The notes beneath the pieces are model-generated. The model was not told the DNA's origin. It did no database searches and was given only the letters and a program-made list of their open reading frames with translations. A stretch of DNA of 54,298 nt from the NCBI GenBank assembly GCA_025449935.1, contig JANWIJ010000079.1, positions 1 through 54,298 on the forward strand. The letters are read 5' to 3'. The DNA is from Chitinophagaceae bacterium (GTDB lineage Bacteria; Bacteroidota; Bacteroidia; Chitinophagales; Chitinophagaceae). How positions within the stretch are numbered: the stretch's first letter is position 1; each line of letters opens with the position of its first letter. Made by a program: the position numbers and the translations under genes. Positions 43,401 through 54,298 of this stretch are shown here, piece by piece.

Positions 43401-44039
43401 TTACTCATAAATCCAAAGGAGTACCGGTTTTTTTGATGAATTGATGATCAGCTTAATTTCTTGCAGGAATTGGGGTGATACCGTCGGGCAACCATTGCTC
43501 TGGCAAATTTCCTCCGCGACTTCTGTTTCAGGTACGCAACTGTGCGAATGCAAAACGACGGTACGTTCAAAAGCATTGTTGTTGCTGCTCTCAAGCCCAT
43601 GCAGTTTATAGGAGTATCCCCATTTGCCGGTATAGGAAGACCCAATTCTATACTTGCCCAGCGAGGTGCAGCCACTTCCAACCACATTGCTGTATTGTCG
43701 CCCCTGTAACCAGTTTTGATAGCAATTACCATGCGCTACCAACCCGGCCTGCTGAATCGAATCATTCCTTAAATCGTAGATGAAAAACCTTTCTTGTCCC
43801 GACGGAAGGCTCATGTCCAGTAAAAAACATACGGAAGCATTATAACCTCTTGTATTCAGGAAATGCTTTGCTTCGGAAGCTTTTGATTTGATTTTGTCCG
43901 TGGCGACCGGTAGTGAATAGCTCCCGGATCCATGCACGGGCACTCTATTCTTAACTCCCTGCCAGAAAACGGAAGAGGATAGCCAGCTGATGCAAAGGAA
44001 AAACAGGATAAGGAGAATTGTTGTCCGGGTCTTGGGCAT
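43401..44039 (-). CDS. YkuD_2-type L,D-transpeptidase catalytic-domain protein
   Basis: A 212-residue exported or membrane-anchored protein with an N-terminal hydrophobic segment (ILLILFFLCISWLSSSVFW). The catalytic domain matches the YkuD-like murein L,D-transpeptidase family: GCTSLGKYRIG, YKLHGLE (with His), VVLHSHSCVP and SNGCPTVSP with the nucleophile Cys (~190). It should modify peptidoglycan cross-links or attach proteins to the wall in the periplasm. A terminator-like hairpin and six T's end exactly at its ATG, which makes regulation by attenuation likely. The family is best known from Bacteroidota. Confidence 0.85.
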   Translation of the reverse strand: MPKTRTTILLILFFLCISWLSSSVFWQGVKNRVPVHGSGSYSLPVATDKIKSKASEAKHFLNTRGYNASVCFLLDMSLPSGQERFFIYDLRNDSIQQAGLVAHGNCYQNWLQGRQYSNVVGSGCTSLGKYRIGSSYTGKWGYSYKLHGLESSNNNAFERTVVLHSHSCVPETEVAEEICQSNGCPTVSPQFLQEIKLIINSSKKPVLLWIYE

Positions 44040-44222: not shown

Positions 44223-44858
44223 TCATTTTTCTTTCTTTTTTGAGTTAGAGGATTGTTTACCGAACCGCCAGCCTGCATACAGCTGAAATACATTGTTTTT
44301 TACATCAATGCTGGGAATAAAAGAAGGTTGCTCGCCGGGTTCGGGTTGCTTGTACAGGTTACCCAGGCTTATATTGACCCGGGCGCCAACTAATATTCCC
44401 CTAAAAGGATGAATCTCCACACCACCACCATACCCATAATCAAAACGGTTATACAAATCCATGAGCTGGCTCCCATTCCCATTCCCGCCGCTTGTGCTGC
44501 TGTCTACTTTTGCATTGAGCAGGAAAGCCATATGGCCTCCAAGAAAAATAGAAATGTATTTGGTTATGTTGATTGACATCAGTTGGGGCATCATTATATA
44601 GTCGAGGTTAACATTACCCGTATTGGTATTGGTTTTATAGTCATACCCCTGGCGGGAAAAGATCAGTTCGGTACGCGAACTGAGAATGCCTTTGGTAGCC
44701 GGGGCTAATACCAGGCCGGCATGAAAGCCTGAACGGCTGCTGTTGTTAATCGAGGAGGCTTTGGTAATATTGGCAAAATTAATACCGGCCCGTATGCCAA
44801 TCTGTGCACCCGCAGAAAGCGGGGCAGACAGGATAAGGAAGACGATTATCTTTCTCAT
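44223..44858 (-). CDS. Outer-membrane beta-barrel protein (PorT-like family)
   Basis: A 211-residue protein with a signal peptide (MRKIIVFLILSAPLSAGAQ) and amphipathic beta-strands typical of the outer-membrane barrel/PorT-like family (e.g. IGIRAGINFANI, GVEIHPFRGILVGARVNISLGNLY, VFQLYAGWRFG). The C-terminus is a Lys/Ser tail and not the terminal Phe. Eight strands are likely. It carries a copy of the shared regulator motif in its promoter, 180 nt upstream, linking it to the sensor/regulator pair. Its role is unknown; membership of the T9SS PorT group proper cannot be shown by eye. Confidence 0.85.
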   Translation of the reverse strand: MRKIIVFLILSAPLSAGAQIGIRAGINFANITKASSINNSSRSGFHAGLVLAPATKGILSSRTELIFSRQGYDYKTNTNTGNVNLDYIMMPQLMSINITKYISIFLGGHMAFLLNAKVDSSTSGGNGNGSQLMDLYNRFDYGYGGGVEIHPFRGILVGARVNISLGNLYKQPEPGEQPSFIPSIDVKNNVFQLYAGWRFGKQSSNSKKKEK

Positions 44859-45045: not shown

Positions 45046-45092
45046 TAAACTTAGCGGATTAGCTGAGCTCCGGCAATAGAACAAAAGTTAGT
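45046..45092 (-). promoter_or_regulatory. Shared 19-bp motif plus -7 element, barrel-gene promoter (site 1)
   Basis: On the minus strand ACTAACTTTTGTTCTATTG (45074-45092) ends in TTG, followed after exactly 20 nt by TAAGTTTA (45046-45053). The 19 bp is identical to site 2 at 49193 and has two differences from site 3 at 49888. Predicted start near 45038. The rest of the 323-bp gap (44859-45181) holds the leader ORF described here and nothing else recognisable. Confidence 0.7.
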
Positions 45093-45181
45093 CTCTGCAG
45101 GAAAAGCCAGGATCAACCGGAAAATTCCCCGGCTCTCATCCAGGAAGGGACGTTAGAAATTTGATCACTGGCCGGCTATGA

Positions 45182-46900
45182 CTATTGCCTGGTCATAATA
45201 TTGTCATCAAAACTCATCCGCAGCGTGGGAGGGGAAGGATTTGATTTATCATAGTCGGTGCCCATAAATGCAATTTTTACTTTTCTCCCATCGGAGTAAT
45301 GGAAGGTGACCGTATAGTCTTTTACATCATAAGTGCCTGACCCGGGTTTAAAACCGGGGTTGATACAATTGGTATTGTCATGGTACAAAACCCGCACAAC
45401 ACCGTTGTCTGTAAATCTTCCATCCGCTGTAAATGTGATAACAGGGATCATTTCATAAGATTCACTCATTTTATAAGTGCCACTAAACCTGGCGCCATCA
45501 ACGGATTTCAATTTAAAAAAATGCCAATCTTGCTGGTTCTTGGTAATGACGAGTTTATCGCCTTCGGTTCTGAAGGGAATATCAGCGAAGATCATTTTCA
45601 AATTTCCCTTTCCATTGCTGAATGTATACGTTTTCCAATCCCGCCGGTTTAGTTCGGGAGGTATGCGGGTGTTTAAGCCATTTAATCCTTCAATAGGAAA
45701 GTTTGGACCAAAATAGACCTGGCCATTCGTTAGCAGAATGAGTGAGTAGGCATCTATTCTGAAAGCAGCGGTGGCTGTTGACTGGATAATTCCCTGCCAT
45801 ATCCCAACAATGCCATCTCCCTTTACAGAACCGGGTTTCAAAACAGCTGCATTAAAATCGGCAAACTGGAGAGAGTATAAAAAACTTTCAATGCTGTTGC
45901 GGTAATCTATTCTATCAGATGCATAGTACCTGGATACGCCTCCACAATTTTTCCTTGACTCGAGGATCGCTACCCGTTCAAAACGGTTATTGATCCTGAC
46001 AATAAATAATTCCAGCCCCACTTCAGTCTTATAGGGAGTACCATTTTCTACCTGGATACCTCCTTTACCCCGGATATATTCCCAACCATTGAATGATGTA
46101 TGGGCTTCTTTTTTGCCATACTTGCCATCGGCCTGGTACATACTGGAGCCTTTATACATAATCGTGGCTTCTTCAAAGCTTTGCGCAAGGGCTTGTTCCA
46201 GGCTTCCGGCACCACTCAACGGCATCATAACCTGCACAGCTAAGAGTTCATCAGCCGGTAAATCAAGCGGTTTAAATACTACGCCATCCTGGAATATTTG
46301 TTCGCTCCAACCCTGCGGGGCTACATAGTTCATTAAGCCGAATTTTCCGATTCCACCATTGCCAGGAGACTTTTCTGTAAGGCTGTTATTGACCGGTGCT
46401 GCAGTTGTTTTATCCAGTTCCATTGTCTCCAGTAGTGCATCAATCTGGGATGTATAAGCCTGGTCATTCAGGCTGCTTCTTATGCTGAGCGTTTTTCCAA
46501 ACCCGCTGAACACGGTTAAAATAATATATACATCGTTCCCGTCCACTTTAACCGGCGTGGCGCCCACAACTGCTTTCCACCCATCGGCGGTCGTCTGTGT
46601 TTCAGTTTGCGGGTTGGAGCCTGCTTTATAAGGTGTTGCCACCAGTTCATTCCATGCGCGGTTGAAATCTTTGCTGGCATCCCCGGTGCTGGCAGAACTT
46701 GCATAAAGGGTAATTACACAAAAACTGCCTGTTGAGCTGTTGACACTTGTATAATTTATTACACCATCCCGGGCATCTTTTTTCCAGTCTTTGGGCGGGT
46801 GATAGGTTACAATATCAAATGTTTCAGTTTGGGAGAAGGCCGGTACAGAAATTATAAGACAGAATAATAATTTCGCAACATGATCATTCAGCTTCTTCAT
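45182..46900 (-). CDS. Secreted protein of unknown function with two N-terminal repeats and a lipocalin-like end (572 residues)
   Basis: A 572-residue protein with a signal peptide (KLLFCLIISVPAFSQ). Residues ~27-165 form a domain (DIVTYHPPKDWKKDARDGVI...) that matches the N-terminal domain of the gene at 48136-49152. Residues ~185-365 look like a second, diverged copy (FGLMNYVAPQGWSEQIFQDG...). The C-terminal ~200 residues carry a beta-rich lipocalin-like pattern (FSGTYKMSESYEM..., GSGTYDVKDYTVTFHYSDGR). No catalytic site was recognised. It is the last gene of a three-gene operon, 37 bp after the previous gene. Probably periplasmic or surface-exposed. Confidence 0.8.
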   Translation of the reverse strand: MKKLNDHVAKLLFCLIISVPAFSQTETFDIVTYHPPKDWKKDARDGVINYTSVNSSTGSFCVITLYASSASTGDASKDFNRAWNELVATPYKAGSNPQTETQTTADGWKAVVGATPVKVDGNDVYIILTVFSGFGKTLSIRSSLNDQAYTSQIDALLETMELDKTTAAPVNNSLTEKSPGNGGIGKFGLMNYVAPQGWSEQIFQDGVVFKPLDLPADELLAVQVMMPLSGAGSLEQALAQSFEEATIMYKGSSMYQADGKYGKKEAHTSFNGWEYIRGKGGIQVENGTPYKTEVGLELFIVRINNRFERVAILESRKNCGGVSRYYASDRIDYRNSIESFLYSLQFADFNAAVLKPGSVKGDGIVGIWQGIIQSTATAAFRIDAYSLILLTNGQVYFGPNFPIEGLNGLNTRIPPELNRRDWKTYTFSNGKGNLKMIFADIPFRTEGDKLVITKNQQDWHFFKLKSVDGARFSGTYKMSESYEMIPVITFTADGRFTDNGVVRVLYHDNTNCINPGFKPGSGTYDVKDYTVTFHYSDGRKVKIAFMGTDYDKSNPSPPTLRMSFDDNIMTRQ

Positions 46901-46937
46901 ATATCACTTTTTATAATTAAAAAATGTCACTTTAAAC

Positions 46938-48092
46938 TTATTTGTCCAGGATTGCCTGTAATGCTTTGAAGTTGAAATTATTTTCGATGTGCCTGGCAAA
47001 ATCCAATGATGGATTTTCTGCATTCCATTTCCAGTATATTACAAAAAACTGCGGAACATGTGCCGGGAGTTTGTTATTGAAATACTGGCTGTTTACCTGC
47101 ACCATCATCATTCCTTCGTTCCCGGCAGCAAATTTTCTAAAGGAACCGTAATAGCCTGTATTTTCCATATGGGCGGGGAGGGCCAAACTATCCCCCGGTG
47201 TTTGGCCCAGGTAATCCTGCGCGGTTTTGATGTCACGCTGGTAAACTTCCTCCACCCTGCTTATATCTTCCTGCTGTCGTTGCCTGGCTGTTTTATATCC
47301 CCGTAAAAAATTAGCTTTTGCCTTTTCCCTTGTTTGTTCGTTTTTTTCCTGGTTCGCGACTCTTTCCATTTGTTGTTGTTTGTAGACTTCTTCTTCTGCG
47401 TCAGTCCGCACCCGCATTTTCATTAACTGCGCTAAATATTGTTTATGCCGGGTTTCTTTACTTTTTAAAAAAGCCATCAAATATTGCTTACGGGTAACGG
47501 GCGTATAAGGCAGCTGTCCCTGGCGGCTGATAAGAATTGTTTTTGAAAAGCTGGTGCCCGTGTTGGACGTACTGTTCTCATTCCCGGCAAACACGGGAAA
47601 CCCGTCTAATTCGCCCAGTTTTTTTGTAAGCAGATAGACCGGTTTGTCTTCCACCAAAAAATTCTCATCTTTTTCCGCAAACCAGCTGAATTTATTTACC
47701 CATGCGTAAAACCAGTTACCCGTTTCTGTACCCAATAACAATTTATTTACATTGCTGTTGCAATAGTATGTTTTGAATAAGGCATTTAAAACATACGATT
47801 CAGCACCCGGACTCACGGACGAATTATAACCGCCCATAGAACGATACCAGGCGGCTTCAATCCCTCTTGGACGGGGATAAGCCGCCTGTAACAATTGCTG
47901 TATCTTGTCAATGCGGTTTATTACCTGTGCCTGGTTACCAGGTTTCATAGTAGCGTCCGGTCGTTTTGTCCATTTACCATTTATCGCCATAATTATTTCA
48001 TCATTGCAGGGTGCTTGTGCCAGCCCTGTTTGCATGAAAAAGGTAAGCAGGCATGCGGGAACGATTTTTTTATGTTCCAGGATCAATTGCAT
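46938..48092 (-). CDS. Secreted protein with central coiled coil, unknown function (384 residues)
   Basis: A 384-residue protein with a signal peptide ending near residue 26 (LLTFFMQTGLAQA). The first ~190 residues are a mixed domain with a Trp-rich segment (TGNWFYAWVNKFSWF). Residues ~230-300 are strongly charged and helical (EEEVYKQQQMERVANQEKNE...), likely a coiled coil. The C-terminal ~80 residues (YYGSFRKFAAGNEGMMMVQVNSQYFNN...) look like a beta domain. No family was recognised. It sits between two paralogous secreted proteins in one operon (gaps of 43 and 37 bp), which suggests that the three proteins act together. Confidence 0.75.
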   Translation of the reverse strand: MQLILEHKKIVPACLLTFFMQTGLAQAPCNDEIIMAINGKWTKRPDATMKPGNQAQVINRIDKIQQLLQAAYPRPRGIEAAWYRSMGGYNSSVSPGAESYVLNALFKTYYCNSNVNKLLLGTETGNWFYAWVNKFSWFAEKDENFLVEDKPVYLLTKKLGELDGFPVFAGNENSTSNTGTSFSKTILISRQGQLPYTPVTRKQYLMAFLKSKETRHKQYLAQLMKMRVRTDAEEEVYKQQQMERVANQEKNEQTREKAKANFLRGYKTARQRQQEDISRVEEVYQRDIKTAQDYLGQTPGDSLALPAHMENTGYYGSFRKFAAGNEGMMMVQVNSQYFNNKLPAHVPQFFVIYWKWNAENPSLDFARHIENNFNFKALQAILDK

Positions 48093-48135
48093 TTGGATAT
48101 TTTGGTAAAACCATAACGGTTACATACCGTAATGG

Positions 48136-49152
48136 CTATTTTAAAGGATGGAATTTGAATTCCGGCTGTTTTTCCCGGCTGTATAAAAAAGAATTCGGGA
48201 ATAAACTATTGGATGAAAATCCACCGTCAATGACATTTTCTCTGGAAGCAGTCAGCACCAGGTTTGTTTCCTGTATCCCTTCATAATAATACGTTTGCCA
48301 GCTATAGATTCTTTTGGACAAGTTAAGTTGTTCTGAATTCTTCATTTTTCCATCCTGGTCAACCACCCGGTACAAGCTTTTCACGGGTGAGAGTGTTAGC
48401 TGATTGCCTGTTACCCGGTAACTGCCGTTTTCATCAATCAGCCGGTATTCGGTCGCATTGAGATAGCCGCCCCAGCTCTCTCCCTGGAAAATATAAGTCC
48501 CGTTTGTTTTAAAATCATACTGGCCCTTTGTGTAACCGGAATAGGCCAGGTTGTTCATTACACCGTTGGTGTAGGCTGAAGGTGAGCTGGAAGATTTGCC
48601 CCATTTCCCATTGATAACGGTAAGGTTTGTTTCAAGCCCCGGTTCCTTTTTTGCAGTAGCCACTACTGCTTTTTTATCCAGCTTAACGCTTGCAAGGAAT
48701 TTGTCCAGCTCTGCCACGTAAGCCTGGTCGTTCAGGTTGGCCAGAACCGCCGTGGTTTTTCCGAAACCATTGAATACGGTCAATACTATATAAAAACCAG
48801 CGCCATCTTTTTCTGCTGCTGAAGCCGCGGACATCACATTCCAGCCCTCGGGTGTTGTTAATGATTCGGTGGCCGGGTTGGTTCCGGTATTAAAGGGTAT
48901 TACGGCCAATTCGTTCCATTCATGCTGGAAGTCAGCCTGGACATTGCCAGTGCTGGGTATAGCTGCGTAGAGAGCGATCATGCAATAACTCCCGCTAAGG
49001 GTATCCATTTTAGTATAGATCACGACTCCTTCTTTGGTATCTTTTTTCCAGGATCGTGGTATGCTATAGGTAGCAATATCAAAAGTGGCGGTTTGGGGAA
49101 GAACTTCGCGGGTTGGTAATATGCAGAGGAGGGATATGAAAATTCTTTTCAT
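48136..49152 (-). CDS. Secreted protein of unknown function, paralogue of the 572-residue protein (338 residues)
   Basis: A 338-residue protein with a signal peptide (MKRIFISLLCILPTREVLPQ). The domain at ~24-155 (DIATYSIPRSWKKDTKEGVV...) aligns along its full length with the first domain of the 572-residue protein, including WNELAVIPF/WNELVATPY and LNDQAY. A C-terminal lipocalin-like domain (~170-330) follows (INGKWGKSS..., YDFKTNGTYIFQGESWGGYL). No active site is evident. It is the first gene of the operon and carries site 2 of the shared regulatory motif 41 bp upstream. Leader predicted to be only a few nucleotides. Confidence 0.8.
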   Translation of the reverse strand: MKRIFISLLCILPTREVLPQTATFDIATYSIPRSWKKDTKEGVVIYTKMDTLSGSYCMIALYAAIPSTGNVQADFQHEWNELAVIPFNTGTNPATESLTTPEGWNVMSAASAAEKDGAGFYIVLTVFNGFGKTTAVLANLNDQAYVAELDKFLASVKLDKKAVVATAKKEPGLETNLTVINGKWGKSSSSPSAYTNGVMNNLAYSGYTKGQYDFKTNGTYIFQGESWGGYLNATEYRLIDENGSYRVTGNQLTLSPVKSLYRVVDQDGKMKNSEQLNLSKRIYSWQTYYYEGIQETNLVLTASRENVIDGGFSSNSLFPNSFLYSREKQPEFKFHPLK

Positions 49153-49164
49153 AAGCTAAGGGGA

Positions 49165-49211
49165 TAAAAATAGTTCTATCGTGCTGCCTGCCCAATAGAA
49201 CAAAAGTTAGT
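49165..49211 (-). promoter_or_regulatory. Shared 19-bp motif plus -7 element, secreted-protein operon (site 2)
   Basis: On the minus strand ACTAACTTTTGTTCTATTG (49193-49211), then exactly 20 nt, then TATTTTTA (49165-49172). An ATAGAAC/GTTCTAT inverted repeat (49173-49179 and 49195-49201, centres 22 bp apart) is present only at this site. Predicted start is within ~10 nt of the ATG at 49152. Confidence 0.7.
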
Positions 49212-49220
49212 TCAGCCGGA

Positions 49221-49850
49221 TCAATTTTTCCCAAAAGCCTTATTAATAGCCTCGGTCCGGTTCTCCACATGAAGCTTTTCATATATTTTATGAATGTGCT
49301 GGCGAACCGTGCCGGTAGCGATGGAAAGCTGGTCCGCGATTTCCTTGTATAAAAGTCCCTTGGAGAGCAGCAGCAGGATTTCATTCTCCCTGGCGGATAA
49401 TGCTTCCACGGGCTCTGCTTTTTTTTCATTCTCCCTGAAAACAGTAACCAGCTTGCGGGCAATATTGGCACTCATCGGGCTCCCCCCGCTGTGTAATTCT
49501 TTTAATGCTTCGATTAACTGAAGCAGGCCGGTATTTTTTAGTAAATAACCGGAAGCCCCTGCTTTTAATGCTTCAAAAACCTTTTCATCATTTTCATATA
49601 CTGTAAACATCATAAACTGCGTGGCGGGGACTTTGGTTTTTACCTGGCGGATACATTCAATGCCATTCATTCCCGGAAGGTTGATATCCATAATAACGAT
49701 GTCAGGCTTAAGTACTGGTATATCCACCAGGGCTTCTTCCGCGGTTTTAAAAGTAGCCAGCACGGCAAAACCTTTGCTAAGGGAAAGAAAGCTCTTTAAC
49801 CCGTTGCGTACTTCATCAAGATCCTCAACAATGGCAATAGATATGCTCAT
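49221..49850 (-). CDS. NarL/FixJ-type response regulator
   Basis: A 209-residue two-component regulator. The receiver (1-120) has the acidic pair VEDLDE (Glu9/Asp10), phospho-acceptor Asp55 in IVIMDINLPGMNG, the Thr switch in FTVYEND and conserved Lys in GYLLKNTG. The C-terminal LuxR-type helix-turn-helix (~145-205) reads LSARENEILLLLSKGLLYKEIADQLSIATGTVRQHIHKIYEKL. It is 67 bp downstream of the sensor kinase gene, same strand, so the two are a cognate pair. Its own promoter carries site 3 of the shared motif, pointing to autoregulation. Confidence 0.93.
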   Translation of the reverse strand: MSISIAIVEDLDEVRNGLKSFLSLSKGFAVLATFKTAEEALVDIPVLKPDIVIMDINLPGMNGIECIRQVKTKVPATQFMMFTVYENDEKVFEALKAGASGYLLKNTGLLQLIEALKELHSGGSPMSANIARKLVTVFRENEKKAEPVEALSARENEILLLLSKGLLYKEIADQLSIATGTVRQHIHKIYEKLHVENRTEAINKAFGKN

Positions 49851-49859
49851 ATAGTTAGC

Positions 49860-49906
49860 TGAAAGTAATTTAGCAGGTTTGCTTTAACAATAGAACGAAA
49901 GTTAAT
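49860..49906 (-). promoter_or_regulatory. Shared motif plus -7 element, response-regulator promoter (site 3)
   Basis: On the minus strand ATTAACTTTCGTTCTATTG (49888-49906), then exactly 20 nt, then TACTTTCA (49860-49867). It differs from sites 1 and 2 at two of the 19 bases. It lies in the 67-bp gap after the kinase gene. Confidence 0.6.
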
Positions 49907-49917
49907 AAAGAACCGGG

Positions 49918-52900
49918 TCAGGTTAACGGAGCACTCAACACGACTTCCGTGCCATCGTCACCCGTTATGTTGAAAACACCTTTTATTTCAGACATTCTTT
50001 TCTGCATATTGCTGATACCGTTACTAAAAGGCCGGATATTCTTTTTATCAAAGCCCATCCCGTCGTCTTTAATCCGAATGGTTAAATGCTGGCCCGTATT
50101 GACGGTAATAACTATATGATCGGCCTGGGCATGTTTGATAATATTATGCAGGGCTTCCTTGATCGTAAGGTAAATATTCCGCCTGAACTCACCGCTCACA
50201 AAAAGGTCAGGTATATTTTCAGGCATATTTATTTTACAGCTGATACCATTTTGTGTAAGGTAGTCGGCCGCATAAGAACGGGTGTAGGACAACAGGTCAC
50301 TCAGGGAGTCATTTTTTTCATTCAGGGCCCAGACTATTTCTCCCATTTTATCAATCATTTCATGGGAGTATTCCCTGATTTTCGTGATGTCTTCTTCGAT
50401 AGGCTGGCGCTGCTGTTTTTTTATGCCGATGGTTTCACTCAGGAATTTAATCCTGGATAACCCGGCACCAAGGTCATCATGCATATCTGTCGCAATCCTC
50501 GTTCTTTCCTTTTCAATCGCCTGTTGTCTCTCCAGTACTGTTTTTTGCTTTTCCAGTTTTCTGCGGTAATAGAATCTTATGCCTGCTATCAGCATACCAA
50601 CACCCAACAGCCCGATTCCCACGCGGAACCACCAGCGCTGCCACCAGGGAGGTACGATGACAAAGGCAAAGGTTGTTGCTGCCGGTGAGTAAGCCGTCGA
50701 AGGGAAAAAAGCTTTCACCTGCAGGGTATAGCTCCCGGGAGAAAGATTCAGGAGGTTAATGTCGGCAACATTGCTGGTATCACTCCATTCTTCCGGGCCA
50801 GCCCCCGTCAGCAGGTAACTGTATTTTATTTGTTTTTCATCCAGGAATGCAGGGGCAGCTACACTGAACGTGATATTACGCTGCTGGTATTTCAGGCGCA
50901 AAGGAGACGGGAAGAGCGAACTGCGTTTCCCATTTATTTTTATTTCTTCAATTAATAATTTTGGTTCATAATGTGATGGCCCGTTCCGGGACGCCTCCAT
51001 CCGGAAAAGTATGCCGGAGTTGCTGAGTGCAAAAGCATTTTTGTTAAGATCTGTCCAGACAGTACTGATGTAAGAAAAAATATTATTGCTTTTAGTCAGG
51101 TTTTCCAGCCGGTAACTGTCGCCGTTGGTTTTTATCAGCCTGTCCAGGCCTGTTTGCATACCAATAATTATATTGTTATCATCATCGGTCGCAAGAGAAG
51201 TGACAAAATTATCTGTCAGGCCGTCCTGTGTCTGAAAATGAAATATTTTTCTTAACCGGTTGTTTTTATAGTCAAAACCCATGAGCCCGTTGTAACGCGT
51301 ACCTGTCCAGAGGATTTCATTTTTATCAACGGTCATGCAACGGGGGGAAGCATTTTCAAACTCTTTTGTAAACCCGGCTTTTTTCTGCAGGTAATTGGAT
51401 GGGTTTTCAGGATGCAGCGAAAAAACCTGCAACCCGTTACTGCGGCTCACCACCCACAGCTGTTTATTCCTGTCCATATACATTCCCTCAATCAGGTCGT
51501 ATGAATTTACCGGGTAGGTATGCAATAGTTTTTCCTGCCGGAACACACAGATATTTCTTCCCTCGAAGAGAATGATATTGCCAGAGGGATCATTTACATA
51601 GCTCGCTCCAAAGGAGGCTGTATCGGGGAGTTCCAGGATTTTTTTGAACCGGATCGTGGTTTCATCACCTGCTGGCAGCGCTGCCATATAAAGATTATTA
51701 TAATCGGCAGCATATAAGTTACGGCTATTATAATACAGCGTATTGGCATTAAAGGAGGGGGCGACAGAGAAGCTTTTAGTTCTGAACAGGGCCTGTAAAA
51801 TCACTTCCCCGTTGTTCATGACTACCCAGCAGGTATCGGGCGAATTTGACCTAACGCACCTTACCCCGGATTTATTTTCTCCAAAAATCGCGGGCGAGGA
51901 CTGAAGCTTTGTATTGGATAATTTATAAACACCGTTGCCGTCATGACACACCCACAGCACATCCTCGCGGTCAATAAAAAAATTCTGCAATACCAAATCA
52001 GCTATTTCAGGTGAGCCGATGTGGAGGATAGTACCGTCTTTCCGGTAACGGACTATGCCTTTGCCTGACGAAGCGATATGGAGTTCGTTCTGACCATTAA
52101 AAACAATATTTCCGGGGTGAAAGGTCCCGGCAGCCGCAGCTAAATAATAGGGTTTCACGAACACCAATTTCCCGGTTTGCAGGGCAGTGGTATCCAGGTT
52201 CAAGATTTCTTTGTTCACACTGATCCACAGCTTTCCCGAATGATCAGATTTCAAACTGTAGATGAGCGCTTTTGGCAAGTAGTCTGTTATTGCATTGTCT
52301 TTCTTGCTATAGAGGTAAAGCCCGGTGTAATACCTCAGGTCATTGGTTGTAAAAACAAGGAAGTCCTTGTATTCGGCTACCTCACCCAGGTAGATCGCAT
52401 CCTCCTTTTTCCCGGGTAGCCGGGTTGAAAGTTTTTCAAAGCTATGCTGCTTTAACTGGTAGAGGCCGTCATCAGCCGTAGCATACACAATACCCTCCCG
52501 GCTCTTCAAAAAATGATTCACCACCGGGCAGTTGTTTCCCGTCAGGGGGAGGTTCTTTATTTCACTGTGAACCAGGACCCGCAAACCACAGGTATTGGTA
52601 GCCACCAGCAGGGAATCATTGCCTATTTCAAGCACATCATTCACCAGGTCAACCGGCAACCCGTTTTGCGAGGTATAGTTCCTGAACCGTGCGCCATCAT
52701 ACATACTGAGGCCGCCAAAGGTCAGGAAATACATCCGGCCCCTGCTGTCCTGGTAAGCTTTCCGGACCCGGCTGTTTACGAGGCCATCCCTGGGAGTATA
52801 ATGAACAAATGGATATTGTTGCGCTACGCAACAGGTAAAAAAAATAAGCATGCAGCAACAGGAAAAAACCTCTTTTGCATACTTAAATGTAATCAGAAAA

Positions 52901-52926
52901 ATATTATTGCGGGAGCTCACTGACAC
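49918..52926 (-). CDS. Two-component sensor histidine kinase with beta-propeller and Y_Y_Y sensor
   Basis: A 1002-residue membrane kinase. A signal peptide or signal anchor (CCCMLIFFTCCVAQ, ~24-37) is followed by a periplasmic part with two-component propeller repeats (e.g. YTPRDGLVNSRVRKAYQDSRG, FHFQTQDGLTDNFVTSLATD) and a Y_Y_Y domain (~680-750). One transmembrane helix (~762-782) leads to a HisKA_3 domain with H-box RIATDMHDDLGAGLSRIKF (His ~815) and an HATPase with IKEALHNIIKHAQ and DDGMGFD. This pairs with the NarL-type regulator downstream. The best start is GTG at 52926, overlapping the end of dxs by 23 bp; the next ATG would cut the signal peptide. Confidence 0.9.
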   Translation of the reverse strand: MSVSSRNNIFLITFKYAKEVFSCCCMLIFFTCCVAQQYPFVHYTPRDGLVNSRVRKAYQDSRGRMYFLTFGGLSMYDGARFRNYTSQNGLPVDLVNDVLEIGNDSLLVATNTCGLRVLVHSEIKNLPLTGNNCPVVNHFLKSREGIVYATADDGLYQLKQHSFEKLSTRLPGKKEDAIYLGEVAEYKDFLVFTTNDLRYYTGLYLYSKKDNAITDYLPKALIYSLKSDHSGKLWISVNKEILNLDTTALQTGKLVFVKPYYLAAAAGTFHPGNIVFNGQNELHIASSGKGIVRYRKDGTILHIGSPEIADLVLQNFFIDREDVLWVCHDGNGVYKLSNTKLQSSPAIFGENKSGVRCVRSNSPDTCWVVMNNGEVILQALFRTKSFSVAPSFNANTLYYNSRNLYAADYNNLYMAALPAGDETTIRFKKILELPDTASFGASYVNDPSGNIILFEGRNICVFRQEKLLHTYPVNSYDLIEGMYMDRNKQLWVVSRSNGLQVFSLHPENPSNYLQKKAGFTKEFENASPRCMTVDKNEILWTGTRYNGLMGFDYKNNRLRKIFHFQTQDGLTDNFVTSLATDDDNNIIIGMQTGLDRLIKTNGDSYRLENLTKSNNIFSYISTVWTDLNKNAFALSNSGILFRMEASRNGPSHYEPKLLIEEIKINGKRSSLFPSPLRLKYQQRNITFSVAAPAFLDEKQIKYSYLLTGAGPEEWSDTSNVADINLLNLSPGSYTLQVKAFFPSTAYSPAATTFAFVIVPPWWQRWWFRVGIGLLGVGMLIAGIRFYYRRKLEKQKTVLERQQAIEKERTRIATDMHDDLGAGLSRIKFLSETIGIKKQQRQPIEEDITKIREYSHEMIDKMGEIVWALNEKNDSLSDLLSYTRSYAADYLTQNGISCKINMPENIPDLFVSGEFRRNIYLTIKEALHNIIKHAQADHIVITVNTGQHLTIRIKDDGMGFDKKNIRPFSNGISNMQKRMSEIKGVFNITGDDGTEVVLSAPLT

Positions 52927-54298
52927 TTACCTGTTCCTTCATCATTTCTCTAACCGCGGCGGCAATTGCGGGTGCATCATACCCGCATTCGTGCTGCAGT
53001 TCTTTAGGCGTTCCATGCTCAACCAGGCGGTCCGGAATACCCAGGATCGTTACGTCATTTTTATACCCATGCACCGCCATGAACTCGAGAATAGCAGAAC
53101 CCAGGCCACCTTCTACTGTCCCGTCTTCAACCGTAATTAATTTTTTATACTGCCGGCAGGCTTCGTGAAGCAACGCTTCATCCAGGGGTTTGGCAAACCG
53201 CATATCATAATGTGCAGGATTCAGCCCGTCGTTCTTTAATTCCCGGATAGCTGCAGCGGCAAAATTTCCAGGGTGACCAAAAGAAAGTATAGCAATATCT
53301 TTTCCATCTTTCAACCTCCGCCCGGTACCGATTTTTATTTTTTTCATCTCCGTCTTCCATTCCGGCATCACGCCTTCACCACGCGGGTAGCGGATCACAA
53401 ACGGTAAAGTGGTGGATTCCAGTTGGGCAGTGTACATGAGGTTCCGCAATTCACTTTCATTCATGGGAGCACTTACAATCATATTTGGAATGCAACGCAT
53501 ATAAGCAATGTCATAACAGCCGTGGTGCGTGGGGCCATCGTCACCCACGAGCCCTGCCCGGTCCAGGCAAAATATTACGGGTAATTTTTGTATGGCCACA
53601 TCATGTATCACCTGGTCATATGCCCGTTGCATGAACGAAGAATAGATATTACAGAATACTTTCATGCCCTGGGTCGCCATGCCGGCACTTACCGTAACCG
53701 CATGTTGCTCAGCGATGCCTACATCAAAAGCACGGTCGGGCATTTTATCCATCATAAATTTCAGGGAGGAACCGGAAGGCATAGCCGGGGTGATACCAAA
53801 TATTTTATTATTCTTTTCCGCGAGTTCAATAATTGTATGACCAAAGACATCCTGGTATTTAGAAGGCTGGGGAAGATCAAACCTCTTCTTTTGGATCTCC
53901 CCGGTTATCTTATCAAATAACCCGGGCGCATGCCATTTGGTCTGGTCCTTTTCTGCCAGCGCATAGCCTTTACCTTTTGTAGTAATGATATGCAGGATCT
54001 TCGGTCCGGGTATTTCCCGCAGGTCCCTCAATGTGTCAACAAGTTTCGCAATATTATGCCCGTCAATCGGTCCGAAATAACGGAGTTTCAGTGCCTCAAA
54101 GAGGTTGGCCCGGCTGTGTACCATGCCTTTCACTCCTTCAACCAGTTTATGCGCCATGGCCCTGGTAAAATTCTTACCTACCGGCAGTTTGCCCATCAGG
54201 TTCCATACTTCATCTTTTACTTTATTGTAAGTGGGTGAAGTAGAAATATCGGTCAGGTATTCTTTTAAGGCCCCGACATTCGGGTCAATGCCCATGCA
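52904..54298 (-). CDS. dxs: 1-deoxy-D-xylulose-5-phosphate synthase (N-terminus outside window)
   Basis: At least 464 residues of DXS, the thiamine-diphosphate enzyme that starts the MEP isoprenoid pathway. The visible part begins near MGIDPNVGALKEYL and covers the end of the ThDP-binding domain, the pyrimidine domain with GIAEQHAVTVSAGMATQG (catalytic Glu) and DRAGLVGDDGPTHHG, and the C-terminal domain (LITVEDGTVEGGLGSAI). The first ~170 residues lie beyond the right edge. The C-terminus is intact. Its last codons overlap the sensor-kinase start, so the two genes may be co-transcribed. Confidence 0.95.
   Translation of the reverse strand, partial: CMGIDPNVGALKEYLTDISTSPTYNKVKDEVWNLMGKLPVGKNFTRAMAHKLVEGVKGMVHSRANLFEALKLRYFGPIDGHNIAKLVDTLRDLREIPGPKILHIITTKGKGYALAEKDQTKWHAPGLFDKITGEIQKKRFDLPQPSKYQDVFGHTIIELAEKNNKIFGITPAMPSGSSLKFMMDKMPDRAFDVGIAEQHAVTVSAGMATQGMKVFCNIYSSFMQRAYDQVIHDVAIQKLPVIFCLDRAGLVGDDGPTHHGCYDIAYMRCIPNMIVSAPMNESELRNLMYTAQLESTTLPFVIRYPRGEGVMPEWKTEMKKIKIGTGRRLKDGKDIAILSFGHPGNFAAAAIRELKNDGLNPAHYDMRFAKPLDEALLHEACRQYKKLITVEDGTVEGGLGSAILEFMAVHGYKNDVTILGIPDRLVEHGTPKELQHECGYDAPAIAAAVREMMKEQVSVSELPQ

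What the first reader, a model, noticed from the sequence alone, without database searches (positions are those of the whole stretch)
45046..49906. Three promoters share a 19-bp element at a fixed distance from the -7 box: a probable new NarL-type regulon
On the minus strand ACTAACTTTTGTTCTATTG occurs exactly twice (45074-45092, 49193-49211) and once with two changes (49888-49906). In all three, the terminal TTG lies exactly 20 nt from a TAnnTT(T/C)A element, the spacing of Bacteroidota -33/-7 promoters. The sites precede an outer-membrane barrel gene, a three-gene secreted operon and the NarL-type regulator itself. Seen in sequence: the repeats and their spacing. Known: NarL-type regulators often bind next to the -33/-35 box and control their own gene. 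Inferred: this regulator binds the 19-bp element and activates these genes.
Basis: partly seen in the sequence, partly recalled or inferred. Interest (0 to 1): 0.85.

Follow-up and report, generated by a model that had tools for sequence, protein, structure and literature searches.

The report
Conserved self-regulating bacterial surface-gene switch
Three promoters in this bacterial genome carry the same short DNA label, very probably the landing site of the neighbouring response regulator, which would thereby control its own gene and nearby cell-surface genes; the same label at the same distance from the promoter recurs in dozens of related genomes, so the prediction is strong and directly testable, though the kind of system is familiar.

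Summary
The 19-mer occurs three times in the window (expected 0.01); in the whole 3.50-Mb genome the element plus a -7 box is found only at these places. In 24 of 24 loci whose complete regulator is at least 69% identical, a matching element stands before the regulator gene, with TAnnTT exactly 20 nt after its TTG. Exact 17-mer copies: 46 in 25 genomes carrying such a regulator, 0 in 36 genomes without a close orthologue. The core is a dyad, AAC-N4-GTT, abutting the -33 TTG; its geometry resembles the LiaR motif rather than the NarL heptamer. Sister clades with a different recognition helix mostly carry a different operator at nearly the same place. Recurring targets are the regulator itself, an outer-membrane barrel and other apparently exported proteins. 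Best explanation: a propeller-kinase/NarL-LiaR-type pair controlling its own regulator gene and a small local surface-protein regulon, probably as a class-II-like activator. Binding, sign of regulation and signal are inferred, not shown. New member of a known kind; interest about 0.5.

The parts
49888..49906 (-). Operator 1, ATTAACTTTCGTTCTATTG, between kinase stop and regulator ATG; includes the -33 TTG
   Evidence: matching site before the regulator in 24 of 24 closest complete loci
49860..49867 (-). -7 box TACTTTCA of the regulator promoter, N20 after the TTG
49221..49850 (-). Response regulator, 209 aa: receiver domain (Asp55 in MDINLP) and LuxR-type GerE HTH, TVRQHIH at 181-187
49918..52926 (-). 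Sensor histidine kinase: two-component propeller repeats, Y_Y_Y just below its cut-off, HisKA_3, HATPase_c; the GTG start overlaps the end of dxs
49193..49211 (-). Operator 2, ACTAACTTTTGTTCTATTG, before the three-gene operon
49165..49172 (-). -7 box TATTTTTA of the operon promoter, N20 after the TTG
48136..49152 (-). Predicted exported 338-aa protein, first gene of the operon; similar to the target in L221
46938..48092 (-). Predicted exported 384-aa protein, no Pfam match
45182..46900 (-). Predicted exported 572-aa protein, N-terminal part similar to the 338-aa protein; Lipocalin_4 match below its cut-off
45074..45092 (-). Operator 3, ACTAACTTTTGTTCTATTG, before the barrel gene (long leader)
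45046..45053 (-). -7 box TAAGTTTA of the barrel promoter, N20 after the TTG
44223..44858 (-). Outer-membrane beta-barrel protein (OMP_b-brl_2), 211 aa; similar proteins stand behind the same operator in other genomes

Best explanation
The 19-bp element is the operator of the LuxR/NarL-type response regulator encoded at 49221-49850. A dimer of the (presumably phosphorylated) regulator binds the dyad TAAC-TTTY-GTT(C/A), whose downstream edge runs into the -33 TTG of a housekeeping-type promoter (TTG-N20-TAnnTT). If the -7 octamer lies at -12 to -5, as mapped in Flavobacterium psychrophilum, the dyad centre is near -43.5, close to the position of class II activators. The propeller kinase encoded upstream would sense an envelope or extracellular signal; the regulator would then raise its own transcription from a promoter between the kinase and regulator genes and switch on the neighbouring exported three-gene operon and the outer-membrane barrel gene. 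Shown: sites, spacing, scarcity in the genome, conservation with the orthologous pair, recurrence of the barrel as target, and operator differences between sister clades that go with recognition-helix differences. Inferred: physical binding, dependence on phosphorylation, activation rather than repression, and the signal.
For: Observation. Loci chosen by protein similarity alone: the best 17-mer match within 150 nt before the regulator is 14/17 or better in 44 of 77 loci, against 2 of 7,700 shuffled windows and 39 of 13,870 other windows of the same loci (the latter probably include true target sites); TAnnTT at N20 in 41 of the 44, at N19 in 2, none in 1; the 24 loci at 69% identity or more all pass, all at N20. 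Kinase matched upstream of the regulator in 74 of 76 loci tested. Exact 17-mers: 46 in 25 regulator-carrying genomes (about 108 Mb), 0 in 36 genomes without a close orthologue (about 119 Mb). 14 paralogues at 49-53% identity: best forward match 10-11/17, other strand 9-11/17. Spacing over 95 distinct sites: N20 in 48 of 55 exact and 27 of 40 one-mismatch sites; no other offset above 4. Most flanking and spacer columns are below 0.3 bits, so the copies are not simple recent duplicates. Helix by operator class: A mostly [TVIL][GSAN]TV[RK]QHIH, B HGTVR[QH]HIH (9 of 9), C FHTVRQHI[GC] (11 of 11); classes cluster on the regulator tree. C-N4-G-N4-A, three of four fixed bases of the LiaR motif, in 71 of 75 N20 sites (motif from PMC7191749, passages). 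Nearest solved relatives include VraR, DevR and NarL.
Against: No binding or expression data. The link of operator class with helix is phylogenetically confounded: a few clades, not many independent switches. 16 of the 75 regulators on the tree had no recognised operator (one, L131, has a cut upstream region); class A needs 5 changes, so it is not one clade. Two regulators break the helix rule: L141 has the common class A helix TGTVRQHIH but a class D operator before its gene (an exact class A site stands before its next gene), and L142 (HGTVRQHIY) lies with clade B but was scored class A. 20 of 95 sites have no -7 box at N20. A site overlapping the -33 region could equally serve repression. 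The barrel gene's element is 215 nt from its ATG here. In G008 the element before the regulator matches better on the other strand (14/17), and neither G008 nor G010 has a match at up to 1 mismatch. The full LiaR motif, with its first T, is in only 24 of 75 sites and not in the window's three.
Confidence: 0.83

Rival explanations
1. Same regulator and operator, but as a repressor: the dimer overlaps the -33 box and blocks RNA polymerase until the signal removes it; autorepression keeps regulator levels low.
For: The dyad runs into the -33 TTG in the sites found. NarL represses ompW from a site centred at -18.5 (PMC4886647, passages).
Against: The near-constant N20 and a centre near -43.5 fit a class II activator (in E. 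coli FNR -41.5 and CRP -42.5, same passages); in sister clade B a perfect dyad stands 22 bp upstream of a degenerate -33-proximal site (counted by eye), which fits recruitment better than occlusion. Not decisive.
Confidence: 0.15
2. The element is the long -33 region of an alternative sigma factor's promoter, not a regulator site.
For: Fixed spacing to a -7 box and high identity across promoters.
Against: The -7 box is of the housekeeping TAnnTTT type (consensus in PMC9723704, passages); the core has dyad symmetry (AAC-N4-GTT pairs kept in 70, 71 and 75 of 75 sites), exact copies accompany this regulator and were not found in 36 genomes without a close orthologue, and the element differs between regulator clades.
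Confidence: 0.03
3. Chance, a dispersed repeat or recent local duplication of promoter DNA.
For: The three copies lie within 5 kb of each other.
Against: Expected 0.01; surrounding sequence differs; conserved at the corresponding place in many diverged genomes.
Confidence: 0.01

Closest known systems
LiaR/VraR cell-envelope-stress regulators of Firmicutes
   Same: Same protein family; VraR is the best-scoring solved relative (7ve6); operator geometry T-N4-C-N4-G-N4-A largely shared (C-N4-G-N4-A in 71 of 75 sites; motif in PMC7191749 passages).
   Different: The kinase carries a large propeller sensor; LiaR's primary site on PliaI is -76 to -52, here the centre is about -43.5; the inner bases TTTY are nearly fixed here; the core promoter is of the Bacteroidota type.
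NarL/NarP of Escherichia coli
   Same: Receiver + GerE architecture; solved relative 1a04.
   Different: Operator is not built of TACYYMT heptamers (consensus in PMC4886647 passages); small local regulon.
HaeSR of Porphyromonas gingivalis
   Same: Bacteroidota two-component system whose regulator binds its own promoter and that of ragA (PMC3764172 passages).
   Different: Binding sites in front of 57 genes are reported there; the passages seen give no operator sequence and do not state the regulator's family.
Hybrid two-component systems (HTCS) of Bacteroides
   Same: Propeller and Y_Y_Y sensor domains (recalled for HTCS).
   Different: Here kinase and regulator are separate genes and the output domain is GerE; AraC-type output of HTCS is recalled.

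Membership tests
NarL/FixJ (LuxR-type) response regulators | Receiver domain with phospho-acceptor Asp plus C-terminal GerE HTH | tested here: met
   Response_reg 1.3e-24, GerE 5.7e-16; MDINLP at 54, LLKN at 103
NarL regulon proper | Operator of TACYYMT heptamers | tested here: not met
   Operator core is TAACTTTYGTTMTATTG
LiaR/VraR regulators | Operator T-N4-C-N4-G-N4-A | tested here: inconclusive
   C-N4-G-N4-A 71 of 75, full motif 24 of 75; the window's three lack the first T
LiaR/VraR regulators | LiaF-like third component | not tested
   No search for a LiaF-like gene was made
HTCS | Sensor, kinase, receiver and HTH in one polypeptide | tested here: not met
   Separate kinase and GerE regulator genes
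Autoregulated two-component operon | Regulator bound at its own promoter | not testable with these tools
   Operator present there in 24 of 24 closest complete loci; binding cannot be measured here
Class II activator-dependent promoter | Operator centred near -41 to -43, meeting the -35/-33 element | tested here: inconclusive
   Nearly fixed N20 spacing; start sites not mapped in this organism

The most novel reading that the evidence does not exclude
A family-wide regulator/operator code in Bacteroidota: a family of propeller-kinase/LuxR-type pairs, often encoded near dxs, in which each clade carries its own operator, locked at a fixed distance from the -7 box, while the exported proteins placed behind it are swapped between genomes. 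A few recognition-helix positions would set the operator bases, and the regulator would be made from a nearly leaderless transcript.
Probability: 0.45. Interest if true: 0.65.

Novelty: new member of a known kind. Interest (0 to 1): 0.52.

Why it matters
As far as I recall, few operators are known for LuxR-type regulators in Bacteroidota. Here the operator, its promoter geometry and likely target genes are predicted for dozens of genomes, including a named species (Puia dinghuensis, L104), and the sister clades offer natural operator/helix variants. This makes DNA recognition by this regulator family, and the control of many unannotated exported proteins, directly testable.

Tried and rejected
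Chance and alternative-sigma readings were rejected (see rivals). The weak fourth genomic match (C72:15565, 3 mismatches) was dropped: no -7 box. Literature: three exact 17-mers occur in no held paper; the listings of searches showed nothing that I recognised as this regulator or operator; subscription papers and preprints are not held. Papers: PMC9723704, PMC7191749, PMC4886647 and PMC3764172 were seen as passages only; others only in search listings. Rows dropped: 3 of the 80 loci (L121, L158, L160: regulator cut off; L121 is 81% identical over residues 52-209 and could not be tested); L155, L161 and L162 besides before the tree. One search printed flanks for only part of the 80 loci. G163 and G348 are the same genome by identical coordinates and are counted once. 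Several of the 36 comparison genomes are incomplete drafts. The export test is crude: 41 of 43 targets pass, but so do 61% of 508 background ORFs. A structure job for the 338-aa protein was unfinished at eight polls, so no fold is claimed; alignment A2 was not used.
Full report
OBSERVATION. In each the TTG is followed by N20 and TAnnTT(T/C)A. In the whole genome (G000, 3.50 Mb) only one more match with up to 3 mismatches exists, without a -7 box, and a promoter-form pattern finds exactly these three (reversed control 0).

ANATOMY. On the minus strand the order is dxs (end at 52904), propeller/HisKA_3 kinase (52926-49918), operator 1, LuxR-type regulator (49850-49221), operator 2, three predicted exported genes (49152-45182), operator 3, OMP_b-brl_2 barrel (44858-44223), L,D-transpeptidase-like gene (44039-43401). 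Operators 1 and 2 end 37 and 40 nt before the ATG, operator 3 ends 215 nt before it.

CONSERVATION. One scan with the regulator protein gave 80 loci. Of 77 with a usable regulator start, 44 have a 14/17 or better match to the window's 17-mer core within 150 nt before the regulator, against 2 of 7,700 shuffles and 39 of 13,870 other windows of the same loci; 41 of the 44 have TAnnTT at N20, two at N19, one none. The 24 loci at 69% identity or more with a complete regulator are all among them; L121 (81%, cut off) could not be tested. A kinase match lies upstream of the regulator in 74 of 76 loci tested.

SPECIFICITY. TAACTTTYGTTMTATTG with up to one mismatch: 78 sites in 25 regulator-carrying genomes (46 exact, in 22 of the 25; reversed control 12), every genome with at least one. 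In 40 further genomes: G001 two exact; G163 (the same genome as G348) one exact and three one-mismatch; G008 and G010 none; the other 36 zero exact and three one-mismatch (reversed control 21). In those 36 no regulator above 54% identity was listed or, for five of them, none at E up to 1e-55. Fourteen paralogues at 49-53% identity have at best 10-11/17 before the regulator on the forward strand and 9-11/17 on the other.

GEOMETRY. Over 95 distinct sites in the loci held, TAnnTT stands at N20 in 48 of 55 exact and 27 of 40 one-mismatch sites; no other offset exceeds 4. Most flanking and spacer columns carry under 0.3 bits. These sites were chosen by the motif, so the high bits inside it are partly by construction; the counts are not. 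The dyad is AAC-N4-GTT (its three inner pairs kept in 71, 75 and 70 of 75 sites; the next pairs outward in 13, 37 and 27); C-N4-G-N4-A, three of four fixed bases of the LiaR motif, is present in 71 of 75, the full motif in 24 (motif from PMC7191749 passages). With the octamer at -12 to -5 (PMC9723704 passages) the dyad centre falls near -43.5.

CO-VARIATION. Clade B regulators (HGTVR[QH]HIH, 9 of 9) carry TAACGTTCGTCCTATTG-like sites, and behind the regulator a perfect dyad TATAACATTCGTTATA (exact or one mismatch) followed 22 bp on by a degenerate site at a CTATTG. Clade C (FHTVRQHI[GC], 11 of 11) carries ACAAAATACCTAT, with TAnnTT most often 21 nt further (11 of 24 distinct matches). Four regulators (D) have TAACCAAAGTT-like sites. 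On a tree of 75 regulators the operator classes need 12 changes against a shuffled mean of 36.4; the window lies in a supported group of 24 rows, all class A. This is what direct recognition predicts, but it rests on few clades; 16 of 75 rows had no recognised operator, and L141 and L142 break the helix rule (see evidence against).

TARGETS. Of 88 sites with an assigned downstream ORF (some assignments, at sites without a -7 box, are probably spurious), 30 precede a regulator, 14 a barrel of the window's type (the window's included), 8 a family without Pfam match in the two members tested, and 8 a family with weak ZU5 matches in the two members tested; others include YadA-head/Peptidase_S74, OmpA-domain and T9SS-tailed proteins. 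Of 43 distinct non-regulator targets with an N20 box, 41 look exported by a crude rule that 61% of background ORFs also pass. So the constant parts are operator, promoter and regulator, while the apparently exported cargo varies.

MECHANISM. Most likely a class-II-like activator with positive autoregulation; repression remains possible. Binding, phosphorylation and signal were not testable here.

NOVELTY. An operator and local regulon not found in the held library, within a familiar kind of system.

Noticed in passing
window 49850-49867; 27 regulator promoters: The regulator's ATG lies a median of 7 nt after the -7 octamer (44 other targets: median 18), predicting a leader of about 3 nt, i.e. 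a nearly leaderless regulator mRNA; leaderless mRNAs were only 5.5% in Flavobacterium psychrophilum (PMC9723704 passages).
   Followed up: partly
window 52904-54295; 20 of 100 loci: dxs lies beside the kinase/regulator pair in the window and is matched in 20 of 100 loci searched (some loci overlap on one contig): an old linkage of unknown meaning.
   Followed up: partly
L118, L123, L127, L128, L132, L135, L137, L139 behind the regulator: In sister clade B a dyad TATAACATTCGTTATA stands 22 bp upstream of a degenerate -33-proximal site: two sites about two helical turns apart.
   Followed up: partly
L093/L124/L146, L094/L118, L099/L139: Two or three paralogous regulators of different operator classes sit on the same contig, about 8-17 kb from one another.
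   Followed up: no
window 43401-44039; 10 of 100 loci: An L,D-transpeptidase-like (YkuD_2) gene follows the barrel gene; a match lies in 10 of 100 loci searched.
   Followed up: no
L089:3118-3166: Tandem operators 32 bp apart (about three helical turns) before one target gene.
   Followed up: no
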